Source: Acidobacteriaceae bacterium (GTDB lineage: Bacteria; Acidobacteriota; Terriglobia; Terriglobales; Acidobacteriaceae). Taken from it: a DNA stretch of 64,000 nucleotides. Positions 7,437 to 49,400 of this stretch are shown in pieces (position 1 is the stretch's first letter; every line of letters begins with the position of its first letter). Made by a program: the position numbers and the translations under genes. Below the pieces are notes generated by a model. It saw only the letters and a program-made list of their open reading frames with translations. It was not told the DNA's origin and did not search any database. The DNA lies in the NCBI GenBank assembly GCA_025462885.1, contig JAOAPN010000014.1:124001-188000 (forward strand), read 5' to 3'.

Positions 7437-7700
7437 TGTTTTTATGTAAAGTCCTTCGGATCAACAATATACAGAGGGTGGCTCTCTCCAAAGTCTTGCA
7501 GGCAAAGGAGTTGCGGGTAAAGTCTTGTCAGGCATAGGCTTACGGGCGATGCTGCCAGGGTGGGCGCTGCTTTTCTCATTTTTTCTTTCTGTATCTATTT
7601 TAGTGAGTGGACATAACTAAAATGCCACTTTTATTTATTTTTTATCTGCTGATGGAGCTAGAGTTACTGTGTTTTGCGAGGCTTCGAGGGCTTGACAAGT
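7437..7700 (+). repeat. Dispersed noncoding repeat, copy 1
   Basis: This stretch is repeated, diverged but in the same order and orientation, at 49155-49400. Shared landmarks are GTAAAGTCCTT (7446), two AAAGTCTT-headed subunits exactly 29 bp apart (7490 and 7519), a pyrimidine-rich tract, the block CATAACTAAAATGCCACTTT (from 7612), and a TTGACA-like hexamer near 7692. Its T-rich tracts contrast with the GC-rich neighbourhood. It fills the gap between the convergent genes ending at 7426 and 7714. No known gene or RNA family was recognised. It could be a structured RNA, a short mobile element, or a carrier of a 26-codon or longer ORF starting at 7622. Confidence 0.7.
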
Positions 7701-7713
7701 TGGAACTGGCTTT

Positions 7714-8319
7714 TCAGTCGACTCGCATGTTGGCGTCCACGTCGAGGATGAGGGATTGTCCCTGGACGAGGAGGGAATGGAGTTTGAGGGAGCTGAGGGA
7801 GAGAGCGTAGCCGGTGGTTTCAGCGGAATGGAGGAGGAGCTTCCGCATCAGGTCGGCGGCGTTGACCTTCATCTGGGACGGCAGTTTGCGGGAGAGGAAT
7901 GGGACGAGGAGGAAGTTGAGCTCGCGGGATTCGGAGAGACTTTCGATGCGGGCGTCGCGGAAGCCGACGGATTCGCCTTGGGCTTCGGGGATGAAGGAGA
8001 CGTCGGCGTCGGTGTTGAAAGGGACTCCGACGCAGGTGCCGTAGACGGAGGTCCCGATCTTGGCTCGGGTATGGACGTGGACGACGATGCGGTCGTCCTT
8101 GAAGGAGATTTTAGGGGAGTCGGCGTAGACGTAGCAGGGGGAGGCAGCGTCGCCGCGCATGTAATAGCGACCGTCCCCGGCGTCGAAGAGCTGGGCTTTG
8201 AGGGTGCGCTCGATGGCCTGCGCTGAGACCTTCACCTCAATGGCCCGGGCCTGGGGGGATGCGAGCAGGAAGAGTGACAGGGATGCAAGCAGGAGGCGTG
8301 CGGGGAGCGCGGACGTCAT
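7714..8319 (-). CDS. Exported protein of unknown function
   Basis: This is a 201-residue protein with a clear signal peptide (residues 1 to about 26, ending ARA-IEV). I chose the ATG at 8319 because it puts the signal peptide at the very N-terminus; an in-frame ATG at 8337 adds six residues (MLYPRC) and cannot be excluded. The mature protein begins with an amphipathic helix (KVSAQAIERTLKAQLF) and is then mostly beta strand, with two Cys (CYVYAD and GTCVGV) that could form a disulfide in the periplasm. The layout is reminiscent of lipid-binding bactericidal/permeability or SMP-type folds, but I do not recognise the family. Conserved acidobacterial hypothetical; no function assigned. Confidence 0.6.
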   Translation of the reverse strand: MTSALPARLLLASLSLFLLASPQARAIEVKVSAQAIERTLKAQLFDAGDGRYYMRGDAASPCYVYADSPKISFKDDRIVVHVHTRAKIGTSVYGTCVGVPFNTDADVSFIPEAQGESVGFRDARIESLSESRELNFLLVPFLSRKLPSQMKVNAADLMRKLLLHSAETTGYALSLSSLKLHSLLVQGQSLILDVDANMRVD

Positions 8320-8431
8320 GCATCGAGGATAGAGCATTGTGCCTGCAGGGTTATTCTCGGGGGATTGAGTACTTCGTTCGCATGGGGCGAACTTCCATGC
8401 GGAACACTACACGAACTTCTGCTGCGAGACA

Positions 8432-9031
8432 CTAGACGGAGGCTTCCGCGGTGCTTTGTTTTGAGAAGAGTTCTCTTGCTGCGGTGATGCACTGAGCCAG
8501 TCCGAAGCTGAGGAGATAGCCGAAGATAAGCCAGGCGATCTCCCGTGGTTCGCGTTCGGTCTCGGCGGTGACGGCGACGCAGGAGTATCCGATAGCGAAG
8601 GCCAGGGCTGCGATGGAGGCGGCGTAGTTCCAGATGCTTGCGCCTCGTGTGTGGGCGTGCCTGGCGATGATGCACTCGACGATGGCCGTGAAAAACGCCT
8701 GTGCGGCGATCATGTAGAGAAACCAGTGCAGGTGCACCTTGTCGTAGACCAGGGAAAGCAGGGCGACTCCGAAGGAGACACCGAGGATGCCCTGGACGCG
8801 AAGGGTGAAAGCCTCGGTTTTGGAGGGCAGCATGAAGCTGCTGATGAAGACCAGCGCGCTATCGAGAATTGCGTAAACCGAGAGGCAGAGGGCCGAGATG
8901 ATGACTGCAAAGGGAAGAAAGAGCAGCGTCGCGGCCAGGTCGGGAATGACGATGGCTCCGCTTCCGACTGCGAGTGCGAGGAGACCGCGAATGAGGTTGG
9001 TGACCCAGAAATGTAAATCCCGGCTATTCAT
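8432..9031 (-). CDS. Multi-pass membrane protein, HdeD-like
   Basis: This 199-residue protein is built almost entirely of hydrophobic segments; I count six likely transmembrane helices starting at about residues 12, 35, 80, 103, 134 and 165. Its length, its six helices in two similar halves and the short loops resemble the HdeD/DUF308 family of acid-stress membrane proteins, but the sequence match by eye is weak. There are no catalytic motifs. It lies on the same strand as its downstream neighbour, with about 110 bp between them. The 278 bp upstream (9032-9309) hold no gene I can support. Confidence 0.55.
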   Translation of the reverse strand: MNSRDLHFWVTNLIRGLLALAVGSGAIVIPDLAATLLFLPFAVIISALCLSVYAILDSALVFISSFMLPSKTEAFTLRVQGILGVSFGVALLSLVYDKVHLHWFLYMIAAQAFFTAIVECIIARHAHTRGASIWNYAASIAALAFAIGYSCVAVTAETEREPREIAWLIFGYLLSFGLAQCITAARELFSKQSTAEASV

Positions 9032-9309
9032 CGCTGGTGGGCTCCCCGGAGACCGTTTGCCGTACCTGGAGGTTCCTTACGCCGCAGGCGCAAGAAGGGC
9101 ATGGACTCTGTCGACACTATAGCCCCCGCGGGTGTCTGGACTGAATTCTGGGCTGAAGCATGACCTGATTCCGACTGCATCTGTCGATTGTAGTGTGACG
9201 TATGTCGTGGCGGTTTATTCGCGGGCGAGCGTAGAGTGTCCCATGTTCTGGAGTTTTGGCGAAAGGTTGGGAGAAGGCTCTGTGAGAGGTTGAACAGTTT
9301 CGCTGCTGC

Positions 9310-10548
9310 TTACATCGCGGGGGCTCGACGGACCCAGAGGAGAGGCTGGCGGATGGGGAAGGTGAGTTGGAGAATGGGGTTCGTGGGGTCGGAGGGGAGG
9401 CTCTTCCAGAGGTCGACATACTCCGGGCGGCTGTAGGCACGACCGGCGAGGAGCAGGCTGGGCTGTCGCAGGGGGAGCGCGGTGAAGAGGGTCGTGTCGG
9501 CACGGTACGGCCAGGCGCCACGGTTGAGGATGTAGGGGAAGTGGTGGGCGATGGCGACGCGCATGCCAGGGCCGTCCTGCAGCTCATACTCCCACGCGCT
9601 CTCGAAGCGGGTGGAGAGAAGATCGCAGATGGCGGCGAGCATATCCAGGTTGAAGAGCGAGTTGCGGTAGGGCAGCGATGAAGTGACCTCTCGCGGGAAG
9701 CTGCCGTTGGCGACCATCTGGGCGCGGAGGGTGGTGGTACGGAAGAAGTGACGGAGCTGGATCAGGCCGATGATCTCGTTGGGTGGCGGTGTAAGTGGGG
9801 CGAGGGACGAGGTCGGCTGGGGGATTTTTCGGACGCCGGCGTTAGGGAGAGGAACGAGTCGTGCGTAAGCGGCAGCCTGGAGGAGCCAGGAGGTTCCGTG
9901 GTGGCTGCGTTGATCGCGGGCCAGCAGCGCGACACGGGCGCTGCCAAGCCATTCCAGATAGGCGGCGAACCATGCGTAGATGGCAGTGAGGTCTGCTTCG
10001 GGGAGAGCTTCGGTGCGGGTCAGGAAGCTGACGGCCTGGGCTACTTCGGCGAGGTGGACGGTTTCGAGAATTCCTTCGAAGCGAGGCTCTTTCGATCCGC
10101 GTATGAGTTGCGCGTAAGGGAGTTGTGGCGCCATGCGGTGCGCGGGATCCACGAACCAGGCGCGAAGATGGGCGGCAGCGTGGGTCGCGTAACGGAGGTC
10201 GTTGGTCAGGACGAAGGCAGCGGTGAGGGCGGGTACCTGGATGCTGAAGTTGAGGAGAGCTTCGCTGTGAGCGGTGAAAGGCTGGGCTGTTGCACCGGTC
10301 TTTGCATCCGGGGTTGATTCGGCGGCTTCGGAGTAGAAGTCCTGCGGCGTGCCGGGGCTTTGGGAGGCGGGGAAGCCGGTGATGGTGGCCGGAGGCTGGG
10401 TAAGGAAACGGTTGGCGGCGGCGAGGATGCGATCGCGGTCGATGGCGGCCACGTCGGCGCGGGCGCTGGGAGCCTGGGCGCGGAGCTTGCCGGGGGCCAG
10501 GAGGGCGAGGGCGGTGGTCGAGCAGAAGTGTCTGCGGGTGAGACTCAT
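9310..10548 (-). CDS. Alginate lyase-like (AlgL/heparinase-fold) protein, Tat exported
   Basis: This is a 412-residue protein with a twin-arginine leader (TRRHFCS, residues 4-10) and hydrophobic core, so it is probably a folded periplasmic enzyme. The alpha/alpha-toroid alginate lyase domain (PL5-like) spans about 60-390, with the LPYAQLIRGSKEPRFEGILE segment at 143-162 that corresponds to the family's substrate groove. The family's catalytic Asn-Asn-His motif appears here as SHHGTSW (215-221), so the His is present but the neutralising Asn is not obvious. The TonB receptor gene diverges from it 128 bp away, which suggests uptake of a polyuronate or similar polymer. Activity is uncertain because of the altered motif. 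Confidence 0.75.
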   Translation of the reverse strand: MSLTRRHFCSTTALALLAPGKLRAQAPSARADVAAIDRDRILAAANRFLTQPPATITGFPASQSPGTPQDFYSEAAESTPDAKTGATAQPFTAHSEALLNFSIQVPALTAAFVLTNDLRYATHAAAHLRAWFVDPAHRMAPQLPYAQLIRGSKEPRFEGILETVHLAEVAQAVSFLTRTEALPEADLTAIYAWFAAYLEWLGSARVALLARDQRSHHGTSWLLQAAAYARLVPLPNAGVRKIPQPTSSLAPLTPPPNEIIGLIQLRHFFRTTTLRAQMVANGSFPREVTSSLPYRNSLFNLDMLAAICDLLSTRFESAWEYELQDGPGMRVAIAHHFPYILNRGAWPYRADTTLFTALPLRQPSLLLAGRAYSRPEYVDLWKSLPSDPTNPILQLTFPIRQPLLWVRRAPAM

Positions 10549-10676
10549 GGTTGTGTGCTCCGCGGAAGAGTATCACGGGCAGGCGCATGGGGGCGGATTT
10601 GAGAAACGATGCCGATTGGAGCGGTGTAAGCGATGCCATTCGACAGTGCATGGGGGAGTAGCGATAAGCTGAATGT

Positions 10677-12932
10677 GTGCAAAACATCCTGAAACACATT
10701 CGATGGAGCGTGGCGTGGTGTGCCTGCGTGGGCGGCGGTTCAGTCGCATGGGCGCAGAGCCGTAGCGTGCAGGTCTGCGTGGTCGATCAGAGTGGGCGGG
10801 CGATTGCGGATGTGAAGGTTCGGGTGGCCGGGGTGGATGGCGTGAGTGATACGACCGGATGTGCGCGCCTGGCGGTGGATGCGGGGACGGGGCAGGTGGT
10901 TCAACTGACGCGGAATGGGTTCGATCCGGTGACACGGAGTTTGGGAGCAAACGCAAAATTTACGGTTGTCATGCAGCCGGAGACGCGACGTGACGTGGTG
11001 GATGTTACGACGGCTCGAACTCCGCTGGACCTGGACGCGACGGCGAGCAGTGTGCGGACGTTGTCGGAGACACAGTTGGATGAGGCTCCGGGACTGGCGC
11101 TGGATGACAAGCTGCGGCAGGTGGCAGGATTTCAGTTGTTTCGACGGACGAGTTCGTGGGTGGCGAACCCGACGACGCAGGGGACTTCGTTACGCGGGTT
11201 GGGGTCAACGGCGGCGAGCCGGACGCTGGTGCTGAGCGATCAGGTTCCGTTGAACGATGCGTTTGGCGGATGGATTCATTGGAATGAGGCTCCACAGCTT
11301 GCGGTAGCGGGGGTGGAGTTGATGCGCGGCGGCGCCTCGGATCTTTATGGTTCGAGCGCGATTGGCGGCGTCATCGATGTGGCTTCGGTGCGGCCGGAGA
11401 AGAACGGATTTATCGTCGACCTATCGGGCGCGAGCCGCAATACTTCGCTGGCGAATGGCTTGCTGACGCTGGGAGTGGGAAAGACACAGGCCCTGGCGGC
11501 GGTTACGGCGTTCCGGACGGATGGGTATACGTTGATCGCCCCGGAGGTGCGCGGGCCGGTGGATGTTCCTTCGAACGTTCACTCGCAGAGCGGAAGGATT
11601 GAGTTGCGGCATTCACTGGGAACGGACGATGGACTGTTTCTGCGTGGCAATATTTTGAATGAGGCGCGGAGCAATGGAACTCCGGTGACGACGAACGCGA
11701 CGCGGTTGTGGCGCTATGTGGGCGGGGGCGACTGGTCGTTACCGGGATCGGGACGGGTGCTGGCGCGGGTGTATGGGACGCAGCAGGGCTATCGGCAGAG
11801 CTTTTCGTCGGTGACAACGGGCCGCGCATCGGAACGGCTGACCCGGTTGCAGCGTGTGCCGACGCAGCAGCTTGGCGGGTCCGTGCAGTGGGCGCAGAGC
11901 TACAAGACGCTGACGTTTGTGGCGGGCGGCGACTTGATGGATACGCGGGCCACGGATGACGAGACTCCGGTGACGAATAATCTGCTGCAGCCGAAGATCA
12001 GCATCAGCGCGCGGCAGCGGCAGGGTGGAGTGTATGGCGAGGTGCTGTGGCAGCCGGCGAACTGGTCGTTTGCCTTCTCGTCGCGCGTCGACCGGTTTCG
12101 CAGCTTCGATGCACGGCAGGTGGTGAGTGGAGTTCTGACGACTCTGCCGGCGACGGATGAGTTCGTGTACGACCCGAGACTGGGCATTGTGCGGAAGCTG
12201 GGTGGCGGCGTTTCGCTGACGGCCTCGGGCTTCAGGGCGTTTCGCGGACCTTCCATGAACGAGCTTTACCGCACGGGCCAGGTGGGTCAGCAGACGACGC
12301 AGGCGAATCCGAACCTGCGGTCGGAGCGGGCGACGGGATTCGAAGTGGGAACACTGTTTTCGCAGCATAAGCTGGGCACGCTGCGGACGAGCTACTTCTG
12401 GACACAGGTGAATCGGCCAGTGGCGGCGGTGACGTTGAGCACGACGCCGACCAGCTCTCTGCTGCAACGGCAGAACCTGGGGCAGCTTACGAGCAAGGGT
12501 TTTACGGTGGAGGGCGAAGCGAAGCCGCTGCGCTGGATGAACATCACGGCGGGCTATCAATATGCGGATTCGACCGTAACGAAGTTCCAGGCTGACCGCA
12601 CGCTGGAGGGCAAGTGGACGGCGCAGGTGGCGCGGAACAGCGCGTCCGCGCAGGTGCGGATGGCGCAACCGCGGCTTGGCGTACTGAGCCTGGACATTCG
12701 TACGAGCGGGCAGCAGTTCGACGACTCGGCCAACCAGTTTCGACTGGCCCCGTACGCGCAGGTCGATCTATATGCGGAGCACGGCTTTGGCCATGGACTG
12801 CGGGCCTACACGTCGATCCAGAACCTGGGCGGGGGAACCATCGAGGCGGGCAGAACACCGATCCTGACGCTGGGGATTCCGCGGACGATCTCGATTGGGA
12901 TCAAGATGGGATCGAGCGGGATGCGGAACTAG
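10677..12932 (+). CDS. TonB-dependent outer-membrane receptor
   Basis: This is a 751-residue receptor of normal TonB-dependent size. It starts at GTG 10677, since a signal peptide (about 1-26, ending AWA-QS) follows at once and no better start is in frame; the ribosome site is weak. A short carboxypeptidase-regulatory-like domain (about 30-100) precedes the plug (about 115-225, with the QVAGFQLFRR and TSLRGLG segments) and a beta barrel to the end. The domain order matches vitamin/siderophore-type receptors with an added N-terminal domain. It diverges from the alginate-lyase-like gene, so the two may share a control region at 10549-10676 and a substrate. The ligand cannot be read from the sequence. 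Confidence 0.9.
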   Translation: MQNILKHIRWSVAWCACVGGGSVAWAQSRSVQVCVVDQSGRAIADVKVRVAGVDGVSDTTGCARLAVDAGTGQVVQLTRNGFDPVTRSLGANAKFTVVMQPETRRDVVDVTTARTPLDLDATASSVRTLSETQLDEAPGLALDDKLRQVAGFQLFRRTSSWVANPTTQGTSLRGLGSTAASRTLVLSDQVPLNDAFGGWIHWNEAPQLAVAGVELMRGGASDLYGSSAIGGVIDVASVRPEKNGFIVDLSGASRNTSLANGLLTLGVGKTQALAAVTAFRTDGYTLIAPEVRGPVDVPSNVHSQSGRIELRHSLGTDDGLFLRGNILNEARSNGTPVTTNATRLWRYVGGGDWSLPGSGRVLARVYGTQQGYRQSFSSVTTGRASERLTRLQRVPTQQLGGSVQWAQSYKTLTFVAGGDLMDTRATDDETPVTNNLLQPKISISARQRQGGVYGEVLWQPANWSFAFSSRVDRFRSFDARQVVSGVLTTLPATDEFVYDPRLGIVRKLGGGVSLTASGFRAFRGPSMNELYRTGQVGQQTTQANPNLRSERATGFEVGTLFSQHKLGTLRTSYFWTQVNRPVAAVTLSTTPTSSLLQRQNLGQLTSKGFTVEGEAKPLRWMNITAGYQYADSTVTKFQADRTLEGKWTAQVARNSASAQVRMAQPRLGVLSLDIRTSGQQFDDSANQFRLAPYAQVDLYAEHGFGHGLRAYTSIQNLGGGTIEAGRTPILTLGIPRTISIGIKMGSSGMRN

Positions 12933-12945
12933 AGCCGCAGGCTAA

Positions 12946-13533
12946 TTAAGCTCGAAGGGCGTAGGCGATGAGGGTCTCGCCGTGGAGGTTGTGGGCGGCG
13001 TTGAAGGCTTCGTTGCTGGCAGTTTCGAGGGCGGGGACGGTGGGGTCGAGCTCGCAGGCGGCGATCTCTTCTGTGGAGGCGTGGATGAAGCAGAGCTCGC
13101 AGGTGGCGAGATTGTCTTCCTCGGTGCGCATGGGTGGGCCGAAGGTGCGGCACAGGATCGGGCGCGACTCGTAGAGATCACAGGTGCCGGTGGCGGGGTC
13201 CAGGACGGGGCAGGGTTCGTCGTTGGCGAACTCTTCAAAGAGGATGGCGGCTTCGTAGTCTTCGTTGAGGATTCCGGTGGCGACTTCGCCGGGGAACCAG
13301 GGATCGAGGCGGGTGAGGGATTCGGCGACCCGGGCGTGGATGCGGGCGGCTGTTTCTGGGTCGGTATGGTCGAGGGCTTGGAGGCCTTCGCGGAGGCGGG
13401 CTGCGTCTTCGAGAGCGATGGGGAAGACTCCGACGCAACATTGGTAGCAGCCGGGTTTGCAGACGAGATGCGGGCCGGAGCGAGCGACGGAGTCGGCCAG
13501 GGCGGCGTCTACTATTTGGATGAGGGTTGGCAT
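12946..13533 (-). CDS. YkgJ-type cysteine-cluster protein
   Basis: This 195-residue cytoplasmic protein has the Cys pattern of the YkgJ/Fli zinc or iron-binding cluster family: C25, C29, C32 and C33 (CKPGCYQCC), then a central CPVLDPATGTCDLYESRP segment, and RPILCRTFG. These Cys are expected to hold a metal or Fe-S cluster; the biochemical role of the family is unknown. I use the ATG at 13533 because the conserved region starts soon after it; an in-frame ATG at 13590 would add 19 residues of poor quality. It ends 14 bp from the stop of the convergent TonB receptor gene. Confidence 0.75.
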   Translation of the reverse strand: MPTLIQIVDAALADSVARSGPHLVCKPGCYQCCVGVFPIALEDAARLREGLQALDHTDPETAARIHARVAESLTRLDPWFPGEVATGILNEDYEAAILFEEFANDEPCPVLDPATGTCDLYESRPILCRTFGPPMRTEEDNLATCELCFIHASTEEIAACELDPTVPALETASNEAFNAAHNLHGETLIAYALRA

Positions 13534-13681
13534 GGGATTTGGCTGAAGGTCGCGCTTTGCGCGATGCCCACCCATGCGATGAAGCTGCATGAATGGGGCA
13601 CCCGGCTTGTCTGGAAGCGATCCGGAGCGCAGAGACCTTGCTTCTTGATTATCGCTGATTTGGGGAGACGCAACTGCGAAG

Positions 13682-14746
13682 TCAGGGGATGATGTGGTCT
13701 TCGCGGAGGCGGGTGAAGAGGTCGAGGAAGCTGTCGTCGGTGGGTTGGTAGTCGAGGAAGCCGAGTTTGCGGCTCTTGCTCATGTCGGTGACGACCTCGA
13801 TGGGGCGGCCGAGATCGGCGTCCGTGTGCCAGGCGGAGGCGAGGTGGTCGAGGTTGGGTTCGACGAGGTGGTGCGCGGTGGCGAGGGTGCGCCAGGCTTC
13901 GGCAGCGTATTCGAGTTGTTTTTCCAGCGGCGTGATCTCCGCAGGGAAGGGTGCGGGCTCCAGCTCGAACCATGTGGCGATGCGGGACCACATCCAACTC
14001 CAGCGGAAGACGTCGCCGTTGACGACGTTGAAGGCCTGGTCGGAGGCGCTGGGGGTGGTGGAGGCCCACTCCAGATGGCGGGCGAGGAGGCGCGCGTCGG
14101 TCATATCGGTGAGGCTGTTCCACTGGACGGCCGAGCCGGGAAAGATGAAAGGGCGGCCGGTCTCGCGGCACAGAGAGGCGTAGGCGGCGAGGGTGACGCC
14201 CATGTTCATGGCGTTTCCGAGAGCGTAGCCGATGATGGTGTGCGGGCGGTGGACGCTCCAGGTAAAGTGCTGCCGGGCAGCGGCAGCGAAGACCTCGTCC
14301 TCCTGCGCGTAGTAGAAGTTGTCGATGTCGAGACGAGGCTGTTCTTCGCGGAAAGGTGTGGCCGGAAGCGTGCCTTTGCCGTAGGCCTCGAAGGGCCCGA
14401 GGTAATGCTTGAGGCCGGTGACGAGAGCCACGTGCTGGACGGATTCTGCTGCACTGGTGGCGGCGAGAAGGTTCCGCACCATCGCGCTGTTGACGCGGAT
14501 GTTTTCTTTCTCGGTCGGCTGACGGAGCCAGGTGGCGATGAAGATGTGGGTGGGTTTGAGTTCCGCGAGGGCGGTGTTGAGGGCGGCGGGATCGAGCAGG
14601 TCAGCCGCGATGAAGTTAACGCCTTCGAGGCCGGGGGAGGGGCGTCGGGCCAACCCGTACACCTGCCATCCTTTGGACAGCAGGTGCTGGGCGAGATTAT
14701 TTCCTACGATGCCGGTGACGCCGGCAATCAATGCGATGTTGGACAT
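13682..14746 (-). CDS. PRISE-like (progesterone 5-beta-reductase/iridoid synthase-type) SDR
   Basis: This 354-residue NAD(P)H-dependent extended SDR has the features of the PRISE group rather than of ordinary epimerases: the nucleotide motif GVTGIVGNNL (9-18), ARRP (33-36), the catalytic Lys in TGLKHYLGPF (K113) and NFYYAQED (143-150) with the catalytic Tyr. PRISE enzymes reduce the C=C bond of small enones and are used in plants for cardenolide and iridoid synthesis; bacterial relatives reduce general enones. It ends 149 bp before the Cys-cluster gene and starts 12 bp after purB, so it may be co-transcribed with purB. The native substrate is unknown. Confidence 0.8.
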   Translation of the reverse strand: MSNIALIAGVTGIVGNNLAQHLLSKGWQVYGLARRPSPGLEGVNFIAADLLDPAALNTALAELKPTHIFIATWLRQPTEKENIRVNSAMVRNLLAATSAAESVQHVALVTGLKHYLGPFEAYGKGTLPATPFREEQPRLDIDNFYYAQEDEVFAAAARQHFTWSVHRPHTIIGYALGNAMNMGVTLAAYASLCRETGRPFIFPGSAVQWNSLTDMTDARLLARHLEWASTTPSASDQAFNVVNGDVFRWSWMWSRIATWFELEPAPFPAEITPLEKQLEYAAEAWRTLATAHHLVEPNLDHLASAWHTDADLGRPIEVVTDMSKSRKLGFLDYQPTDDSFLDLFTRLREDHIIP

Positions 14747-14758
14747 TCTGTTTAGATG

Positions 14759-16060
14759 CTACGGATGCAGCACTCGATTGAAGATGGCGTCCACATTGGC
14801 GAGTTGGCGGTGATAGTCGAAGGCGTGGTCCAGCTTCTCGGGGGAAAGGCGGGCGGTGATCTCCGGGACTTTGGTTACTTCGTCGCGGAAGACGAGTTCA
14901 TTCTTCCAGGAGTTCATGGCGTGGGTCTGGACGAGGCGGTAGGCGTCTTCGCGGGACATGCCGGATTCGGCAAGGTCCAGGAGCAATTGACCGGAGAAGA
15001 TGAGGCCGCCGGTGGATTCGAGGTTGCGAAGCATTCGCGCTGGGTAGACGAGCAGCTTGGCGATGAGGTTGTCGGTCTTGGCGAGCAGGTAGTCGGCCAG
15101 GATGGTGGAGTCGGGCAGGATGACGCGCTCGGCGGAGGAGTGGGAGATGTCGCGCTCGTGCCAGAGGGCGATGTTCTCGAAGGCGGTCTGAGCGTTGGCC
15201 CGGACGACGCGGGCGAGGCCGGAGATCTGCTCGGAGGTGATGGGGTTGCGCTTGTGAGGCATGGCGCTTGAACCCTTCTGCTTCTCGGAGAAGAACTCTT
15301 CAGCTTCGCGGACCTCGGTGCGCTGGAGGTGGCGGACTTCGGTGGCGATCTTATCCAGGGTGGAGCAGAGAATTGCGAGGGCGGCGACGTAGGCGGCATG
15401 GCGGTCGCGCTGGACGACCTGCGTGGCGACGGCTACCGGTGTGAGGCCGAGGGCCTTGCAGATGGCTTCTTCGTGCTCGGGCTTGAGGTGGCCGAAGGTG
15501 CCGACGGCTCCGGAGAGCTTGCCGACGCGGAGGTCTTCGGCGGCGGCGTCGAAGCGGGTGAGGTTGCGCTGCATCTCGGAGTACCAGAGCAGGAGCTTGA
15601 GGCCGAAGGTGGTGGGTTCGGCGTGAACGCCGTGGGTGCGGCCGATGATGGGAGTGTGTTGGAACTCGATCGCGCGCTTCTTCAGCGTCTCGGAGAGCCT
15701 GACGATACCGGCGCGGATGATCGCGGAGGCTTCCTTGAGCTGGAGGGACTGGGCGGTGTCGACGACGTCGGTTGAGGTGAGGCCGTAGTGGAGCCAGCGA
15801 GAGTCTTCCGGAGAATTGATGTGCTCGGCGACGGTGGTGGTGAAGGCGATGACGTCGTGGCGGACTTCGGCTTCGATCTCGTTGATGCGGTCGACCGTGA
15901 AAGCGCCTTTGTCGCGGATGGCGTCGGCGGCGGACTGGGGGACGAGGCCGAAGCTGGCCAGGGCCTGCGAGGCGGCGGTTTCTACGGTGAGCCAGCAGCG
16001 GTACTTATTTTCGTCGGACCAGATTTGGCCCATTTCCTTGCGGGTGTAGCGCGCGATCAA
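14759..16060 (-). CDS. purB: Adenylosuccinate lyase
   Basis: Catalyses two fumarate-releasing steps of purine synthesis (SAICAR to AICAR, and adenylosuccinate to AMP) in the cytoplasm. The product is 433 residues, normal for the short bacterial PurB. The fumarase/aspartase signature GSSAMPHKRNP lies near residue 262-272, and the GRTHGVHAEPTTFG segment carries the general acid His. The start is TTG at 16060: AAGGAG is six bases upstream (16067-16072) and the protein then begins with the conserved IARYTRKEMGQIWS. The longer ORF from 16096 adds twelve residues without such a ribosome site. A PRISE-like reductase gene follows at 12 bp. Confidence 0.93.
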   Translation of the reverse strand: MIARYTRKEMGQIWSDENKYRCWLTVETAASQALASFGLVPQSAADAIRDKGAFTVDRINEIEAEVRHDVIAFTTTVAEHINSPEDSRWLHYGLTSTDVVDTAQSLQLKEASAIIRAGIVRLSETLKKRAIEFQHTPIIGRTHGVHAEPTTFGLKLLLWYSEMQRNLTRFDAAAEDLRVGKLSGAVGTFGHLKPEHEEAICKALGLTPVAVATQVVQRDRHAAYVAALAILCSTLDKIATEVRHLQRTEVREAEEFFSEKQKGSSAMPHKRNPITSEQISGLARVVRANAQTAFENIALWHERDISHSSAERVILPDSTILADYLLAKTDNLIAKLLVYPARMLRNLESTGGLIFSGQLLLDLAESGMSREDAYRLVQTHAMNSWKNELVFRDEVTKVPEITARLSPEKLDHAFDYHRQLANVDAIFNRVLHP

Positions 16061-16120
16061 GTTAGGCTCCTTGGTTTGAGACTTTAAGTCTACCAAGATC
16101 GCGCGGCAGAGCGTTTTCAG

Positions 16121-16378
16121 TTAGGGGTGGGAGACGCCTAGCAGGGTGGACATCTCTTCGTAGAGGAATCCGCGGCCGGCTTTGTAGGGCTGGATCCACT
16201 TGCCGTCGATGACGAATTGAGGGATGGCGCGCTTGCCTACGTTGGATTCAACGGCGTAGGCGGCACCGGGGACCTGCTCGATGTCGATTTCGGTGTAGGG
16301 GAGGTTGTGCTTGTCGAGGAACTTTTTAGCTTCGCGGCAGTCGCGGCACCAGGATGCAGAGTAGACCGTTATGTCCAT
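16121..16378 (-). CDS. Glutaredoxin-like protein
   Basis: This 85-residue protein has a thioredoxin fold with the active site CRDC (C11-C14) near the N-terminus and the cis-Pro motif in RAIPQFVIDG (about 50-59). It is the size of NrdH/mycoredoxin-type glutaredoxins that reduce disulfides or mixed thiols in the cytoplasm. The Arg-Asp between the cysteines is uncommon but occurs in this group. It lies between an SDR gene and purB on the same strand, with a repeat element on its upstream side (16411-16475). The physiological partner is not evident. Confidence 0.85.
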   Translation of the reverse strand: MDITVYSASWCRDCREAKKFLDKHNLPYTEIDIEQVPGAAYAVESNVGKRAIPQFVIDGKWIQPYKAGRGFLYEEMSTLLGVSHP

Positions 16379-16410
16379 AGGGATAGTTTACCGGGGCTTG
16401 ATGGATTTGT

Positions 16411-16475
16411 GGGTGTCCTGCCGGACGGGCCCGCTACGCGCGGAGCGACCACTTCGTGGTGGGTATACCTTTCTT
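16411..16475. repeat. GC-rich palindromic intergenic repeat (TCCTGCCGGACGGGC family), copy 1
   Basis: The gap between the SDR stop and the glutaredoxin start holds GTGTCCTGCCGGACGGGC (16413-16430), a run with the self-complementary CGCGCG core, and ACCACTTCGTGGT (16449-16461), a perfect short hairpin. The first block recurs at 27362-27376 in the icd-mdh gap. It has no ORF and is best explained as a dispersed repeat. Confidence 0.55.
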
Positions 16476-16480
16476 TTTAT

Positions 16481-17254
16481 CTATTGTTCGTGGTAGTTGC
16501 GGAGTAAGCCTCCGTCTACGACGTAGGTGCTGCCGGTGATGTAGGCGGCTTCGTCGGAGGCAAGGAAGGCGGCGAGGGAGGCTACGTCGTCGGTGGTGCC
16601 GAGGCGGCCCAGGGGGATGTTGGCGAGGAGGGCGTTCAGCTTGGGCTTGTCCTCCAGCAGGGACTTGTTGATGGGGGTAGAGATAGCTCCGGGAGCGATG
16701 TTGTTCACGGTGATGCCGAGAGGGCCTAGTTCCACTGCGAGGTTGCGCATTAGCATGCGGATGCCTCCCTTTGCCGCGCAGTAGGAGGCGAAGTTGGGAA
16801 AGACCAGGTCCTCGTGGACGGAGGAGATGTTGATGATGCGGCCGGTGGTTTTGGTGTCGCGGAGCTTGCGAACGAAGGACTGGGTTAGGAAGAAGACTCC
16901 CCTGAGGTTGATGTCGAGGACTGTATCGTAGTCGGCTTCGGTGACGTCCCAGAAGGCGGCCTTCTTCTCAATGCCGGCGTTGTTGATGAGAATGTCGCAG
17001 CGGCCGAGTTGGGAGTAGGTATCGTCGATGAGTTTCTGGGTGTCGGAGGTCTTTGCCACGTCCGCCTGAACGATGATGGCCTTGCCGCCAGCAGCTTCGA
17101 TGGAAGCCCGCGTCTCGTCGGCTCCGTCAGAGCCGGAACGATAGTTGATGACGACGGTTGCGCCTTCGGAGGCGAGGCGAATGGCGATAGCCTGGCCGAT
17201 GCCGGAGGAGGAACCGGTGACGATGGCGACTTTGCTTGTGAGACAAGAGGGCAT
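16481..17254 (-). CDS. Short-chain dehydrogenase/reductase (glucose 1-dehydrogenase-like)
   Basis: This is a 257-residue classical SDR. The cofactor motif TGSSSGIG is at 13-20, NNAG at 91-94, and the catalytic triad is S144 or S145, Y158 and K162 (YCAAK). The tail ends with the ITGSTYVVDGG segment typical of tetrameric classical SDRs. The nearest named relatives by motif are glucose 1-dehydrogenases and 3-oxoacyl-ACP reductases; the absence of neighbouring fatty acid genes makes the former group more likely, but the substrate cannot be determined. It lies 40 bp downstream of tadA on the same strand, and the pair may be co-transcribed. Confidence 0.8.
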   Translation of the reverse strand: MPSCLTSKVAIVTGSSSGIGQAIAIRLASEGATVVINYRSGSDGADETRASIEAAGGKAIIVQADVAKTSDTQKLIDDTYSQLGRCDILINNAGIEKKAAFWDVTEADYDTVLDINLRGVFFLTQSFVRKLRDTKTTGRIINISSVHEDLVFPNFASYCAAKGGIRMLMRNLAVELGPLGITVNNIAPGAISTPINKSLLEDKPKLNALLANIPLGRLGTTDDVASLAAFLASDEAAYITGSTYVVDGGLLRNYHEQ

Positions 17255-17294
17255 GGGGAACCTTTCCGTGTGGTCAAGCTATTGAGGTGACTTC

Positions 17295-17852: not shown

Positions 17853-17893
17853 CTCGTCTAGTTTAGCGGGATGACTGAGCTTCCGGCTCCAGG

Positions 17894-19759
<1,866 letters not shown>

Positions 19760-20118: not shown

Positions 20119-20133
20119 GGTGTTCCTTTGGAG

Positions 20134-37137: not shown

Positions 37138-37157
37138 GGTTGTTGCCCTCAGAAATC

Positions 37158-37249: not shown

Positions 37250-37256
37250 TTAGACC

Positions 37257-39026: not shown

Positions 39027-39040
39027 GTGATCCTTCTCCG

Positions 39041-39343: not shown

Positions 39344-39345
39344 GT

Positions 39346-40149: not shown

Positions 40150-40167
40150 GAGAACTCCTTGAGGCTT

Positions 40168-40197
40168 GGCTTTCAGTACGGGGGGCTTTCAATACGG
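40168..40197 (-). repeat. Direct repeat upstream of sdhC
   Basis: GGCTTTCAGTACGG (40168-40181) and GGCTTTCAATACGG (40184-40197) differ at one base and lie 16 bp apart, just upstream of the sdhC start codon in the leader. This could be an operator for a regulator of the succinate dehydrogenase operon. Confidence 0.45.
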
Positions 40198-40388
40198 ACG
40201 CAGGCACGATCTGCCGTGGGCTTCCTAAACGTGAGGCTATTACAAGTGGACGAACGAAACTCGGCCGCAGGCTGATTATTCCGCCGCGCTGGAACGACCG
40301 TCAAGGAAAGTGACGTGGTTTGTGCGGTTATCGCTACGTTTGTGCGAAATTGTTGTCCAGCATGAAAACACAGAAGATGCTGTGCCGT

Positions 40389-41021
40389 TCAATCCGTGGG
40401 ATTCAACTTCCGGAGAAGGGCAGCGAGGGCGCGTCCGCGATGGCTCAGCCCGAGGCGTGTCGCCGAGTCGAGTTGCGCCATGGTGCAGCCGTGCTCCGGC
40501 AGATAGAAGAGAGGGTCGTAGCCGAAGCCGTCCGTCCCTTGCGGTGCGAGCAGGATGCGGCCTTCGACGGTGCCATCGGCAGTGTAGAGGACTTCACCGT
40601 CACGCGCGGCGGCGAGGACGCAGTGATAGCGGGCAGAGCGCTCCTCCTCCGCCGTGTTCGAAAGCGCCTCCAGCAGACAGAGGTTGTTGCGGGTGTCGAG
40701 GCTTTGGCTGGGGAGCTCGGGGAATGAGAGATCGTCGGCGTACCGGGCGGAGCGCATCCCGGGCGCTCCAGCCAGAGCATCCACCTCCAGGCCGGAGTCG
40801 TCAGCCAGCACGATCTGGCCGGGTGCACGCCGCGAGTAGAAGCGCGCCTTGAGGATCGCGTTCTCGCTGAAGCTCGGCTGGTCCTCTGCCGGAGCAGGGA
40901 TCGCGCTGAGGCCGGGGAGCGGGAGAATCTGAATCTGCGTAGCTCCCTGATTCGAGCCGCTGGCGGCGGTGGCAAAGTCGCGAAGCTTGCCGGGATTGGA
41001 GGTGGCAACGTAGAGAGTCAT
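40389..41021 (-). CDS. rdgB: Non-canonical purine NTP pyrophosphatase (RdgB/HAM1)
   Basis: Hydrolyses dITP, dXTP and ITP to monophosphates, keeping damaged purines out of DNA. I use the ATG at 41021 because the family N-terminus ([14 protein letters not shown]) follows directly, giving 210 residues, the usual size; the open frame upstream is not conserved. Other landmarks are [23 protein letters not shown], the [15 protein letters not shown] segment and the [10 protein letters not shown] end. It diverges from yjbQ, with 87 bp between starts. Confidence 0.93.
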
Positions 41022-41108
41022 ACAGGTGTGCTTAGTATAGGTTCTGTGAGCATCGCGACTGGCATTGGGGAACAGCCTGCGTCGCCAACGGAAATCAAAG
41101 GAGACAGC

Positions 41109-41540
41109 ATGGCAGGGATGAAGGCGCACACGGAGTATCTGACGATCACCACGGACGAGCGCTACGAGATGGTGCATCTGACCCCGAAGGTCGAAGAGAT
41201 CGTACGGCGCAGCGGGATCGACGATGGCCTGTGCTTCGTCTCACCGATGCACATTACGGCGGCCATTTACGTGAACGACAACGAAGACGGCTTGATCGAG
41301 GACATCGGTCTCTGGCTTGAAAAGCTGGCTCCGCGATGGCCGGGGTACAAGCATCACCAGACCGGAGAGGACAACGCCGACGCCCACCTGAAGGCGCTCC
41401 TGCTGCATCATGAGACGACCTTGCCCGTGACTCGCGGCCGCCTCGATCTCGGTACCTGGCAGAGGATCTTCTACGCCGAGTTCGATGGACAGCGCGCGAA
41501 GCGGATCATTGTGAAGGTGCTGGGTGTCGTAAAAGAATAA
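41109..41540 (+). CDS. yjbQ: YjbQ/UPF0047 family protein
   Basis: This 143-residue protein has the conserved His/Glu pattern of the YjbQ family (secondary thiamine-phosphate synthase-like): [51 protein letters not shown] and [13 protein letters not shown]. The His cluster is thought to bind metal. I start at ATG 41109, which has GGAG at an ideal distance; an in-frame ATG at 41028 adds 27 unconserved residues. The last 35 bases overlap the end of motB on the opposite strand. Confidence 0.85.
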
Positions 41541-42282
41541 TGTCGACCCGGCGGTTCTGCGCGCGGCCCGCTGCTGTGGCGTTCGAGGTTGCCGGATGGT
41601 ACTCCGCGTAGCCGGCGGCCGAGAGATCGGCAGGCGAGACTGTACTGTGTTCGAGCACCAGCCTCGCGATCGCGGTGGCGCGCGCCGTGGACAACTCCCA
41701 GTTCGATACGAACTGCGCCGTGTGGATTGGAACATTATCCGTATGCCCTTCGATGCGGAGAGGTGCCATAGGCAGGCTTGCGGCCAGCTTTGCCAGCAGC
41801 GCAAGGGAGTTGGCGCGCACATCGGCTGAGCCGGAGGGGAAGAAGCCTGCCTCCCTGAGCGAGATGACCAGGCCCTCGGGGGTCGAGCGCATGGTGATGC
41901 TATCCAGCGGGAGCTTCGGAAAGGCTGTGCTTTCGCGAAGAAGCTTCTGGATATGGGCGGCAATCCCAGCCTCGCGTATGGCCTCTGCCGCAAGATCTGC
42001 CGCACCGCTGGTGGGCAGCGGTGGTTGGATCGGAGCAGGTGTGCCATTGCTGGAGGCACCGGCTGTGCGGTCGAGTGGCGGGGTTTTGGAGTGGGCCTCG
42101 AAGGCCCCCATCGGAGTGAAGGCGGTCTGCATGGCGGCGGCAAGCTGCGACTGCTTTTTTCTGTCTGCCTGGCTGGAGGCGAAGAGCACCACGAAGAAGG
42201 CGAAGAGCAGTGTGATGAAGTCCGCGTACGAGACCAGCCAGCGCTCGTGGTTGACGTGCTCGGGATGTTTCTTCCGGCTCAT
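41506..42282 (-). CDS. motB: Flagellar motor stator protein MotB
   Basis: This 258-residue inner-membrane protein has the MotB plan: a cytoplasmic N-terminus, a single helix with the proton-carrying Asp in [18 protein letters not shown] (about 18-35), and a C-terminal OmpA-like peptidoglycan-binding domain (about 120-250, with [10 protein letters not shown] and [16 protein letters not shown]). It overlaps motA by four bases (ATGA), so the two are translationally coupled. It belongs to a flagellar cluster with flbD, fliC, fliD and fliS. Its 3' end overlaps yjbQ by 35 bp. Confidence 0.92.
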
Positions 42283-43064
42283 ACGGTCACCTCGTTGCTT
42301 CTCGAAGCGGTTGCCGGCCTGGAATCGAAGAGGAAGGTGCGGAGCTTGGTCTCGATCATTCGCGGGTTCATGCCTTCCAGGATGGAGATCACGCCTTCGA
42401 GCATCATCTCCTTGATCCTCTGTTCTTCGCGGTGGCGAAACTTGAGCTTGCCGGCAGCAGGCAGGCAGATGAGGTTCGCGAGCGCAACACCGTAGATCGT
42501 AGCGACGAAGGCGGTGGCGATGCCCCGACCCACCTCGTCGATATTGTCGAGGTTCTTCATCACCTGGATCAGGCCCAGCACCGCTCCAATAATTCCTACC
42601 GTTGGTGAGTATCCACCGGCGGCCTCGAAGACGGCGGGAATCTTCTCTTCGATCTCGGAGGTGTTATCGAGCTCGAGCTGCATGATCTTGCGGACCTCAG
42701 CGGGCTCGGTCCCATCGACGGCGAGCATCAGTGCCTGCTTGAGGAACGGGTCGCGAACCATGTCGAGATCGGAGTCGAGCGAGACAATGCCCGACTTGCG
42801 CGCCTTGTTGGCGAACTCGACGAGCTGCGCCAGGATGGCTTCGCCGTCTTCCGCTTTGTGCAGGAAGACCTTGACGACCTGCTTGCAGGCGGCGAGGAAG
42901 ATGCTCATCGGGAACTGCAGCATCACGGCTCCAGCCGTGCCGCCAATGACGATCATGGCGGCCGTGGGTTGGGCGATCTGAGTGATGCTGCCGCCTTCCA
43001 TCATCATGCCGGCGAGAATGCCGATGAGGGCGAGCAGAATTCCACCGATGCTGGCGATATCCAT
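42279..43064 (-). CDS. motA: Flagellar motor stator protein MotA
   Basis: This 261-residue protein has four transmembrane helices (about 5-22, 32-50, 150-170 and 182-200) with the cytoplasmic loop between helices 2 and 3 that contacts the rotor; PTVGIIGAVLGLIQVM carries the Pro expected near the channel. Together with MotB it forms the proton-driven stator. motB follows with a four-base overlap. It is preceded by flbD at 30 bp on the same strand. Confidence 0.92.
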   Translation of the reverse strand: MDIASIGGILLALIGILAGMMMEGGSITQIAQPTAAMIVIGGTAGAVMLQFPMSIFLAACKQVVKVFLHKAEDGEAILAQLVEFANKARKSGIVSLDSDLDMVRDPFLKQALMLAVDGTEPAEVRKIMQLELDNTSEIEEKIPAVFEAAGGYSPTVGIIGAVLGLIQVMKNLDNIDEVGRGIATAFVATIYGVALANLICLPAAGKLKFRHREEQRIKEMMLEGVISILEGMNPRMIETKLRTFLFDSRPATASRSNEVTV

Positions 43065-48360: not shown

Positions 48361-48407
48361 TCTTATTGGAGCCTCTGGGTTTGGAACTGCCTTTGGATTA
48401 GAGGCGG

Positions 48408-49079
48408 TTAGTTGCCCTGAGGGTTCGGGGTTGTTTGCGGAGCCGTGCCGGAGGGCGGCGGGGTGGCGGAGTTATCCGGTTTCGCAGGTTCAGGCTCAGG
48501 CTTCGCGGTGGCTGGAGTCGGCGGTGCGGGCGGCGTGTCGGACTGGCCTACCAGTTCGATGTCGAAGATCAGGTCGGCTTTGGCGGGGATTACGGGCGGT
48601 CGGCCTGCTTCGCCGTAGGCAAGTTGATAGGGAATGTAGAGGCGGCGCTTGCCTCCGACGTGCATGTCCTGGAAGCCGGTGTCCCAGCCCGGAATCACCT
48701 GGTGAGCACCGTACGGGAAGGAGATCGGGGTGCCGCGATCGACGGAGGAGTCGAACTTGGTGCCGTCGGTGGTCCAGCCGGTGTAGTGAACGGTGTAGTA
48801 CTTGCGGGGCTCCGCGAGAGGGCCGGTTCCGATGACGGTATCGACGTAGCGGAGCGAGTAAAGAGGTTTCGGGGTTCCAGTTACTGCGGGGACGTTGGGC
48901 GGCGTGTCTTTCGGGTCGGCGACTGTGGTCGCGGCGACGGGTTTCTTCGCGGTTGTCGCGGTTGTCGCGGTGGTGGTGCGATGGACGGGTGTGGCTGGCT
49001 TTTTGGGGGCGGCGGTTTGGGCGGTGGCGGCGGTGGTCAGGGCCAGGGTGAGGAAGAGGGCAGTGCGGTTGTGAGTCAT
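48408..49079 (-). CDS. FKBP-type peptidyl-prolyl cis-trans isomerase, exported
   Basis: This 223-residue protein has a signal peptide (about 1-20), a long Thr/Ala/Lys-rich linker to about residue 70, and one FKBP domain (about 75-180), with YTVHYTGWTTDGTKFDSSVDRG and the conserved VIPGWDTGFQDMHVGGKRRLYIPYQLAYGE. A Pro-rich tail ends the protein. The low-complexity linker resembles those of other exported foldases in this window (the cyclophilin at 30010). It should act in the periplasm, possibly on outer-membrane proteins. It lies 47 bp upstream of the ABC transporter gene, on the same strand. Confidence 0.88.
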   Translation of the reverse strand: MTHNRTALFLTLALTTAATAQTAAPKKPATPVHRTTTATTATTAKKPVAATTVADPKDTPPNVPAVTGTPKPLYSLRYVDTVIGTGPLAEPRKYYTVHYTGWTTDGTKFDSSVDRGTPISFPYGAHQVIPGWDTGFQDMHVGGKRRLYIPYQLAYGEAGRPPVIPAKADLIFDIELVGQSDTPPAPPTPATAKPEPEPAKPDNSATPPPSGTAPQTTPNPQGN

Positions 49080-49154
49080 CGTTTGTCTAGTTTAGGACGG
49101 AATCGGTCGGGTGGGAGGCTTTTGTGTGTCCAGTCCCCCACCGGGGGTACCTTT

Positions 49155-49400
49155 GCGTAAAGTCCTTATTTTCATGTAGATGACGTATTGGGTGGCGCTA
49201 AAGTCTTCCAGATAAAGGGGTTATGGGTAAAGTCTTCTGCCAGCGTCAGTTACGGCAAGAGGCTCTGTAGTGTCGTCTGTTTTATGGCTACTTCTATTGT
49301 AGGGAACCCTCCATAACTAAAATGCCACTTTTTTATATTTTTTATCTATTGATGGGGCTTGGGTTACTGCGATTCGGGTCGGTTTTGGGGGTTGACAGCA
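49155..49400 (+). repeat. Dispersed noncoding repeat, copy 2
   Basis: It shares a fixed order of landmarks with 7437-7700: GTAAAGTCCTT (49157), AAAGTCTT-headed subunits 29 bp apart (49200 and 49229), a long T-rich tract, the block CATAACTAAAATGCCACTTT (from 49312) and a TTGACA hexamer near 49393. The spacings between landmarks match within 10 bp, while the bases between differ, so it is an old and constrained pair. It includes a frame starting at ATG 49322 whose first 26 codons align without gaps to that of copy 1. Confidence 0.7.

What the first reader, a model, noticed from the sequence alone, without database searches (positions are those of the whole stretch)
7437..49400. An ordered noncoding element present twice, 42 kb apart, with a 29-bp internal period
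Two regions (7437-7700 and 49155-49400, same orientation) share, in the same order: GTAAAGTCCTT, two AAAGTCTT-headed subunits exactly 29 bp apart in both, a T-rich tract, CATAACTAAAATGCCACTTT, and a TTGACA-like hexamer. First-motif-to-subunit distances are 42 and 41 bp, and second-subunit-to-ATG distances are 103 and 93 bp, while the bases in between differ. Fixed order with diverged filler suggests selection on the short blocks, as in a structured RNA, a regulator array or a small mobile element. The A/T content is well above that of the neighbouring genes. I do not recognise it as a known class.
Basis: seen in the sequence. Interest (0 to 1): 0.7.

Follow-up and report, generated by a model that had tools for sequence, protein, structure and literature searches.

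The report
Repeats marking DNA strand-bias start points
The two copies belong to a family of about 270-letter stretches repeated dozens of times in genomes of a family of soil bacteria, and most of those tested lie where a one-directional imbalance between the two DNA strands begins, as if a DNA-copying process started there.

Summary
The two regions are 2 of 37 dispersed elements in this genome (33 with both halves); two relatives have 66 and 55 left halves. The left half occurs in 33 of 37 same-genus genomes, 85 of 200 family genomes (26 of 62 genera) and 0 of 24 outside the family. Anatomy: a left block (C-run, three units, 29-bp period), a variable middle and a right block (reverse-strand -10 box, AACT core, GGGGCTTGACA end). 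No conserved RNA fold was found and no Rfam match. The blocks are under selection.

The surprise is polarity. The element's + strand is the locally G-rich strand at 33 of 37 and 60 of 60 sites in two genomes. In long stretches GC skew steps up at 10 of 12 elements and, most clearly in this genome, fades rightwards over 25-45 kb. Divergent neighbours sit closer than convergent ones in two of three genomes. Most likely it is a cis site where rightward DNA synthesis starts or restarts. The association is strong; the mechanism is inferred. No precedent was found.

The parts
7430..7543 (+). Copy 1, left block: C-run at the left end, unit 1 (GTAAAGTCC..., from 7446), units 2 and 3 (AAAGTCTT at 7490 and 7519, 29 bp apart)
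   Evidence: 62.8 bits, E 1.0e-16
7544..7593 (.). Copy 1, variable middle (T-rich; no strong hairpin by eye in this copy)
   Evidence: gap between the two blocks
7594..7698 (+). Copy 1, right block, ending in TTGACA (7692-7697)
   Evidence: 83.7 bits, E 3.6e-23
7597..7602 (-). Copy 1, -10-like hexamer TAAAAT read on the minus strand, 12 nt from the AGTT core (AACT on +, 7615-7618)
   Evidence: 30 of 32 measurable own-genome copies score >=4 of 6; null 17%
49135..49253 (+). Copy 2, left block: CCCCCACCGGGGG, unit 1 (from 49157), units 2 and 3 (AAAGTCTT at 49200 and 49229, 29 bp apart)
   Evidence: 68.5 bits, E 1.8e-18
49254..49292 (.). Copy 2, variable middle
49293..49398 (+). Copy 2, right block, ending in TTGACA (49392-49397)
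   Evidence: 87.9 bits, E 1.7e-24
49296..49301 (-). Copy 2, -10-like hexamer TACAAT on the minus strand
7430..43000 (+). Domain of positive GC skew that begins at copy 1: -0.09 over 5 kb before it (2-kb gap left out), +0.27 over 5 kb after it, near 0 by 43-46 kb
49135..64000 (+). Second domain of positive GC skew, beginning at copy 2 (0.05 before, 0.30 after) and running to the window's end; the rise starts about 3 kb left of the copy

Best explanation
It is a cis-acting, polar DNA element, not an RNA gene. SHOWN: each copy has a direction; the strand that reads left block to right block is locally G-rich (and on average T-rich at third codon positions); skew steps up at most tested elements and falls with distance to the right, clearly in this genome and less clearly in two others; in two of three genomes neighbours are spaced as if each copy governs tens of kb on its right only. 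INFERRED: the element is a site at which DNA synthesis running rightwards is started, or a broken fork is restarted, so that the + strand is the leading strand from there on. The lagging-strand template (same sequence as +) is exposed as single strand and loses C to T over evolutionary time, which leaves G>C and T>A. The 29-bp units would bind an unknown protein (iteron-like), the T-rich right block would be the opening region, and the minus-strand -10 box with the hairpin that often follows it would make a very short RNA (primer or regulator). Divergent pairs 5-8 kb apart would act as two-way starts.
For: Orientation equals local skew: 33 of 37 elements in G000 and 60 of 60 fetched (of 66 distinct) in G014, element +-300 bp left out, with positive skew for genes of either direction; 48 of the 53 other genomes for which a best-hit locus was fetched. 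Step at 12 elements in three 400-kb stretches: mean 0.221, reached by 0 of 20,000 circular shifts; it survives restriction to 1-kb bins of 57-66% GC, 0.249 after against 0.035 before, 11 of 12 elements. Fall in G000 C10: 0.28 at 0-5 kb, 0.23 at 20 kb, 0.07 at 30 kb, 0.02 at 45 kb. Skew is largest at codon position 3 on average over gene directions, with T>A there on average, so mutational. Spacing: divergent medians 14.6 and 24 kb, convergent 157 and 88 kb in G014 and G024; pooled with G000 the label permutation gives 0 of 5,000. In G133 (another genus) two elements are followed by positive skew (0.13, 0.08) although the skew before them is slightly negative (-0.05, -0.04) and they point towards dnaA. 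Elements point away from dnaA in 15 of 18 scored in G171 and 27 of 36 in G014 C1, by simple left/right on the contig. Selection on the blocks.
Against: No replication data were available; skew is an indirect, slow record. Two of 12 elements show no step (G014 C1 22.9 kb and 102.3 kb). The fall with distance is clean only in G000 C10 (and two bins there at 50-55 kb, n=2, rise again); in G014 it goes from 0.28 to 0.10-0.15 by 25-35 kb with upstream values of 0.08-0.22, and in G133 it is nearly flat. In G014 skew already rises 2-3 kb left of the element and only 41 of 60 have right above left within the fetched 6.5 kb. Gene direction is not wholly without effect: in G000 skew is lower where the left gene is co-oriented. 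Some upward shifts have no detected element (G014 C1 near 160, 176, 216 and 356 kb; G000 C10 near 228 and 336 kb; by eye). G012, with no detected element, still has patches of skew to -0.30, more than G133, which has elements, so it is no clean negative control. The divergent/convergent contrast is absent in G000 (95 against 95 kb). DnaA-box-like words are rare in elements (4 in 37, 1 in 60). No trans-acting protein was identified; no bacterium is known (recalled) to use dozens of start sites.
Confidence: 0.42

Rival explanations
1. Passive marker. The element is a non-autonomous mobile or dispersed repeat that settles in one orientation relative to local fork or strand polarity (as single-strand transposons do, recalled); skew and its steps come from something else, and inversions have carried both along.
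For: Positions are mostly not shared between species: only 6 of 37 G000 loci share a neighbour on the same side and orientation with 60 G014 loci, and in the 20 relatives where both genes flanking copy 1 were matched they are never adjacent (4 candidates scored per genome). Middles vary freely in length and sequence.
Against: No transposase, target duplication or terminal inverted repeats noticed by eye (not searched for by program). 33 of 37 elements keep both blocks and many invariant columns, unlike decaying MITEs. Does not by itself explain steps at elements or convergent pairs being spaced wider than divergent ones.
Confidence: 0.22
2. Polar barrier rather than start: a leftward-moving fork, nuclease or polymerase is stopped or switched at the element (Ter-like or Chi-like), so the leftward process, or the repair synthesis that follows it, is confined to the right side.
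For: Gives the same skew geometry (step at the element, falling to the right). Units of 29 bp and the core TAACTAAA recall terminator sites (recalled, not a test). A reach of tens of kb is of the order of helicase-nuclease processivity (recalled).
Against: No Tus (PF05472) and no RTP (PF02334) in 21 genomes, controls positive. If leftward forks were the main process, the sign would be the reverse of the usual G-rich leading strand.
Confidence: 0.17
3. Start site for a one-way DNA packaging or transfer process (gene-transfer-agent or conjugation-like), with one strand repeatedly passing through a single-stranded state.
For: One-way over tens of kb, with spacing that would cover the chromosome; allows polarity against the main fork direction.
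Against: No packaging or relaxase gene was looked for; purely by analogy.
Confidence: 0.08
4. Start of very long rightward transcription (or a regulatory promoter array); the non-template strand is exposed and mutates.
For: Right block ends in a perfect -35-like TTGACA facing right.
Against: No -10 follows TTGACA in 36 and 56 copies (0 with >=5 of 6; mean score at or below the shuffled null). The clear -10 lies on the minus strand and faces left. Genes within 4 kb to the right are more often antisense (75 anti, 43 co in G000; 96 and 67 in G014) and skew is positive for genes of either direction.
Confidence: 0.06
5. A structured RNA family.
For: Compact, intergenic, conserved blocks; hairpin of -12 kcal/mol or better in the middle of 23 of 37 and 34 of 60 copies.
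Against: 0 conserved pairs in 37 and 31 aligned copies; no Rfam match. The middle hairpin is not conserved in sequence or presence. A very short minus-strand RNA remains possible as a part.
Confidence: 0.05

Closest known systems
Eukaryotic skew N-domains with master replication origins (e.g. PMC3320577; search listing and start of abstract seen; details recalled)
   Same: Sharp upward skew jumps at start points and gradual decline between them; jumps read as origins.
   Different: Eukaryotic, two-way, megabase scale and not defined by a conserved sequence (recalled); here one-way, tens of kb, and marked by a conserved 270-bp element in a bacterium.
Strand-biased bacterial words: Chi, KOPS, architecture imparting sequences (PMC5993296, PMC3269016; search listing and starts of abstracts seen; details recalled)
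   Same: Orientation follows the G-rich (leading) strand; may act in repair or segregation.
   Different: Those are short words (8 bp for AIMS) at very many sites; this is a bipartite 270-bp element at about 40-65 sites with a skew step at most of those tested.
Replication terminators Ter/Tus and Ter/RTP
   Same: Polar, intergenic, units of about 30 bp in the RTP case (recalled); an AACTAAA-like core (recalled).
   Different: Neither protein is present in 21 genomes tested; copies are spread over many contigs of the genome.
Plasmid iteron origins
   Same: Tandem ~20-30-bp units beside a T-rich tract (recalled).
   Different: No Rep gene noticed alongside; dozens of chromosomal copies; function untested.
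REP/BIME and MITE repeats (PMC2817692, PMC3733652; search listing and starts of abstracts seen)
   Same: Dispersed, intergenic, many copies per genome.
   Different: 270 bp, two blocks with fixed order, no terminal inverted repeats noticed, close relation to GC skew.

Membership tests
Rfam structured RNA (incl. Acido-1, Acido-Lenti-1) | Match to a covariance model | tested here: not met
   No match at gathering score on the elements in the window scan (the only hit is Acido-Lenti-1 at 37201-37245, elsewhere); 0 matches at E<=1 on both copies
Rfam structured RNA (incl. Acido-1, Acido-Lenti-1) | Covarying conserved stems | tested here: not met
   0 pairs on 37 left and 31 right blocks
Tus-Ter terminator | Tus protein in the genome | tested here: not met
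   PF05472 in 0 of 21 genomes; E. coli control rings
RTP-Ter terminator | RTP protein in the genome | tested here: not met
   PF02334 in 0 of 21 genomes; B. subtilis control rings
Polar fork barrier in general | Arrest of forks from one side | not testable with these tools
   needs fork mapping
DnaA-type chromosomal origin | Cluster of DnaA boxes | tested here: not met
   TTATNCA(C/A)A 4 times in 37 elements of G000 (0.366 per kb against 0.007 in flanks, so denser, but far too few for clusters) and once in 60 of G014 (0.056 against 0.014); one DnaA C-terminal domain hit per genome in 10 genomes
Replication start or restart site (any protein) | Skew step with the G-rich strand leading away | tested here: met
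   10 of 12 elements, 11 of 12 in 1-kb bins; indirect
Replication start or restart site (any protein) | Nascent DNA or copy-number step at the site | not testable with these tools
   no sequencing of growing cells available
MITE / non-autonomous transposon | Terminal inverted repeats or target-site duplications | tested here: inconclusive
   None seen by eye in the ends of 38 left and 36 right blocks; no program was run for it, and old copies could have lost them
MITE / non-autonomous transposon | Empty sites in relatives | tested here: inconclusive
   Flanking genes of copy 1 are not adjacent in any of 20 relatives in which both were matched, so no empty site could be read; copy 2 was not tried
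sigma-70 promoter facing right from TTGACA | -10 box 16-18 bp after TTGACA | tested here: not met
   0 of 36 and 0 of 56 copies with >=5 of 6
sigma-70-like promoter facing left in the right block | -10 box at fixed place | tested here: met
   30 of 32 measurable in G000 and 43 of 46 in G014 with >=4 of 6, null 17-19%; no TTGACA-like -35 at 17 bp seen by eye

The most novel reading that the evidence does not exclude
Bacteria of this family carry dozens of sequence-defined, one-way DNA synthesis start (or fork restart) sites spread over the chromosome, in addition to the dnaA origin, and divergent pairs of them act as extra two-way origins, so that fork direction is set locally and can even run against the main replichore.
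Probability: 0.25. Interest if true: 0.97.

Novelty: categorically new. Interest (0 to 1): 0.86.

Why it matters
Textbook bacterial chromosomes show one skew switch at the origin and one at the terminus (recalled). In the stretches read here skew is broken into polar domains of tens of kb, most of which begin at a conserved 270-bp element found across a family of soil bacteria. Whatever the mechanism, a short cis sequence is tied to strand-asymmetric mutation over tens of kb; that is directly testable and would bear on whether bacteria can use many start or restart sites, and on how mutation differs along their chromosomes. The models also give a handle for finding the protein.

Tried and rejected
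Structured RNA: folding of both block alignments gave no pairs and Rfam none. Rightward promoter at TTGACA: no -10. Tus and RTP: absent in 21 genomes. DnaA boxes: too few. Transcription as the cause of skew: skew is positive for genes of either direction and genes to the right are more often antisense. Acquired low-GC DNA as the cause of low skew on the left: the step survives in GC-matched bins. Empty-site test for mobility: not possible for copy 1 because gene order is not kept. Gene content between divergent pairs: ordinary-looking genes in three pairs read by their first residues (one pair holds what look by recall like aspartyl- and histidyl-tRNA synthetases; no family scan was run on them), nothing shared seen. 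A negative control, G012 without detected elements, was inconclusive. No autonomous version with a transposase was noticed; in one locus each of G017 and G008 the blocks lie about 650 bp apart, read by eye only.

Literature: (search listings and starts of abstracts only; two searches returned no paper; keyword passages of PMC3174227 and PMC7074687, mention GC skew only in connection with genome maps and a cumulative-skew figure). No report of this element or of such skew domains in bacteria was found in those searches; subscription papers and preprints were not held.

Limits of counts: at most 60 and at most 18 candidates per genome were scored, so counts per genome there are lower bounds and weak hits may be lost. 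For one search the rows used were 66 of 72 hits in G014 and 55 of 58 in G024 (the others are antisense overlaps or a second fragment of the same element) and 37 elements in G000. In one search the G171 list is the 18 scored hits only. 60 of the 66 distinct G014 elements were fetched. One search covers the 53 genomes for which a best-hit locus had been fetched, not all with hits. Gene calls in scripts are a simple codon-composition heuristic, not a published gene finder.
Full report
All motifs are at the stated places, with 29 bp between the two AAAGTCTT heads in both copies and 103 and 93 bp from the second head to the ATG. Both copies are intergenic: copy 1 lies between the ends of a predicted glucoamylase-like gene (6080-7426, +) and an unassigned ORF (7714-8337, -); copy 2 lies between an FKBP-type isomerase gene (48408-49079, -) and an LptF/LptG permease gene (49648-52077, -).

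HOW MANY COPIES. With copy 2 as DNA query the own genome (G000, 5.26 Mb) gives 39 match rows at E<=10, itself included. Two sequence-only models were built from aligned left blocks (37 sequences) and right blocks (31 sequences). On G000 they give 35 distinct left and 35 right blocks; 33 pair up in the same order and orientation about 40-245 bp apart, 2 lefts and 2 rights stand alone, so 37 elements. In relatives the left block occurs in 33 of 37 genomes of the genus and 0 of 24 from other families; the right block in 27 of 61 genomes. In a family-wide sample 85 of 200 genomes and 26 of 62 genera have the left block, although the model came from one genus. G014 and G024 have 66 and 55 distinct left blocks. 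The nearest named relatives of a neighbouring protein are Granulicella and Edaphobacter; the length of G014's largest contig equals that of an Edaphobacter lichenicola M8UP30 contig.

ANATOMY. Left block: a C-run, often followed by a G-run, then unit 1 (in several copies an inverted repeat such as GTAAGTC...GACTTAC), then units 2 and 3, 29 bp apart in 31 of 32 measurable copies (37 examined) in G000 and 45 of 49 (60 examined) in G014. Middle: variable, with a hairpin of -12 kcal/mol or better in 23 of 37 and 34 of 60 copies. Right block: a minus-strand -10 hexamer (mostly TAAAAT or TACAAT in G000, TATACT or TATAAT in G014), in 30 of 32 and 43 of 46 measurable copies against 17-19% by chance, 12 nt from an AGTT core in 27 and 37 of these; then a lineage-specific stretch; then GGGG(C/G)TTGACA. 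A GG-preceded TTGACA follows the left block within 420 bp in 56 of 60 G014 copies against 9 of 480 control windows. Nothing like a -10 follows TTGACA. The core of the right block is lineage-specific (ATGCCACTTT in G000, GACTCATTTA in G007, ATACGCCACGCG in G014), as if it co-evolved with a partner (inference).

SELECTION, NOT RNA. In 25 own-genome right blocks that differ from their consensus by 22% on average, 27 of 107 columns never vary, against 0.22 expected if mismatches fell at random; in 28 left blocks 19 of 110 against 0.003. RNAalifold finds no pair in either alignment, and Rfam has no match on the copies.

THE POLARITY. Window skew is about -0.1 before copy 1, +0.25 to +0.3 after it, falls to 0 at 43-46 kb and rises to about +0.3 at copy 2 (5-kb means -0.09 to 0.27 and 0.05 to 0.30). 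Leaving out the element and 300 bp on each side, the element's + strand is G-rich at 33 of 37 loci in G000 and 60 of 60 in G014; the skew is positive for genes in either direction (0.12 co, 0.18 anti in G000; 0.19 and 0.22 in G014), though in G000 it is lower where the left gene is co-oriented. The best-hit loci fetched from 53 other genomes give 48 of 53; the five misses all lack a TTGACA end, and all 31 that have it are positive (counted from its rows). At third codon positions the skew is 0.19 and 0.38 in G000, 0.33 and 0.47 in G014 for co- and anti-oriented genes; averaged over gene directions this is the largest of the three positions, and T exceeds A there on average, so it is mutational.

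STEPS AT ELEMENTS. In 400 kb of G000 and of G014 skew steps up at most elements; in G014 its sign flips several times, with element direction following. For 12 elements in three stretches (including G133, another genus) the mean step is 0.221 and no circular shift of 20,000 reaches it; 10 of 12 steps are positive. In 1-kb bins 11 of 12 are positive, and this holds in bins of 57-66% GC. In G000 the mean falls from 0.28 to 0.02 over 45 kb (two bins at 50-55 kb, n=2, are 0.08 and 0.14); in G014 from 0.28 to 0.10-0.15 by 25-35 kb; in G133 it stays near 0.04-0.11. Over shorter distances right exceeds left in 32 of 37 (G000) and 41 of 60 (G014). Skew begins to rise 2-3 kb left of the element in G014.

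SPACING. Adjacent divergent elements are close (median 14.6 kb in G014, 24 kb in G024; several pairs at 5-8 kb), convergent ones far (157 and 88 kb). G000 alone shows no difference (95 and 95 kb; 2 divergent and 6 convergent pairs). Pooled over the three: one-sided Mann-Whitney p=5e-4, label permutation 0 of 5,000, under 15 kb 8 of 25 divergent and 1 of 22 convergent. This speaks against simple insertion-then-inversion, which has no reason to space convergent and divergent pairs differently.

RELATION TO THE MAIN ORIGIN. One dnaA hit per genome in all 10 tested. Elements point away from it in 15 of 18 scored in G171 and 27 of 36 in G014 C1, by simple left/right on the contig, but in G133 both elements in the stretch read point towards dnaA along the shorter way and are followed by positive skew where the skew before them is slightly negative. 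So the polarity appears to belong to the element, not only to the main forks.

CONTROLS THAT WERE WEAK OR AGAINST. G012, a same-genus genome without detected elements, has 8% of 4-kb bins with skew beyond 0.2, against 41% and 48% in the G000 and G014 stretches, but G133, which has elements, has 0%; amplitude is therefore no test. Two of 12 elements have no step. Some upward shifts have no detected element, by eye, and genome-specific models found no strong extra ones in the G014 stretch. Positions are mostly not shared between species: 6 of 37 loci share a neighbour on the same side and orientation (14 locus pairs share any), and the genes flanking copy 1 are not adjacent in any of the 20 relatives where both were matched; two close genomes (G171, G218) do show several hits at near-constant offsets.

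READING. A one-way process reaching tens of kb begins at, or up to a few kb left of, the element and exposes the + strand. Rightward DNA synthesis (start or restart) fits the sign (leading strand G-rich), the reach, the spacing and the anatomy (tandem units, T-rich tract, short promoter with a frequent hairpin). A polar barrier gives the same geometry and is the nearest mechanistic rival; a passive oriented repeat is the nearest deflating one. What is shown is the association; what acts on the element is unknown.

Noticed in passing
window 37201-37245 (+): Acido-Lenti-1 RNA (RF01687, 39.9 bits, over its gathering score) between two minus-strand ORFs; unrelated to the element.
   Followed up: no
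window 49430-49620: Short G+C-rich palindromes of the type GGGCCTTCAGCCC and CCTGGGCCTTCGGCCCAGG just right of copy 2; the same kind appears near other copies and inside the middle of L016. Perhaps a separate REP-like repeat family.
   Followed up: no
L008, L004, L006, L009 (middles): Several middles hold nearly the same hairpin GGCCCGGCT...AGCCGGGCC, which could read as a terminator; others have unrelated hairpins or none.
   Followed up: partly
G000:C10 300-385 kb (L232-L236): An island of lower G+C (50-58%) with little GC skew in most bins and no detected element; looks like acquired DNA.
   Followed up: no
L021, L055, L077, L084, L093 right of TTGACA: In some lineages conservation seems to run on past TTGACA (about nGCGATTTTGCTGGGTTTTTG), so the right end may be longer there than in the window's genome.
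   Followed up: no
L101 (G021:C23), 141-246: A small-genome relative keeps a right block without a recognisable left block: elements may be decaying in small genomes.
   Followed up: no
G014:C2 1267590-1274877 (L188, L205): A divergent element pair on a contig without a dnaA hit; from 616 to 1268 kb 12 of 13 listed elements point left, from 1275 to 2033 kb 9 of 10 point right: a second origin-like point, or an assembly or inversion effect.
   Followed up: partly
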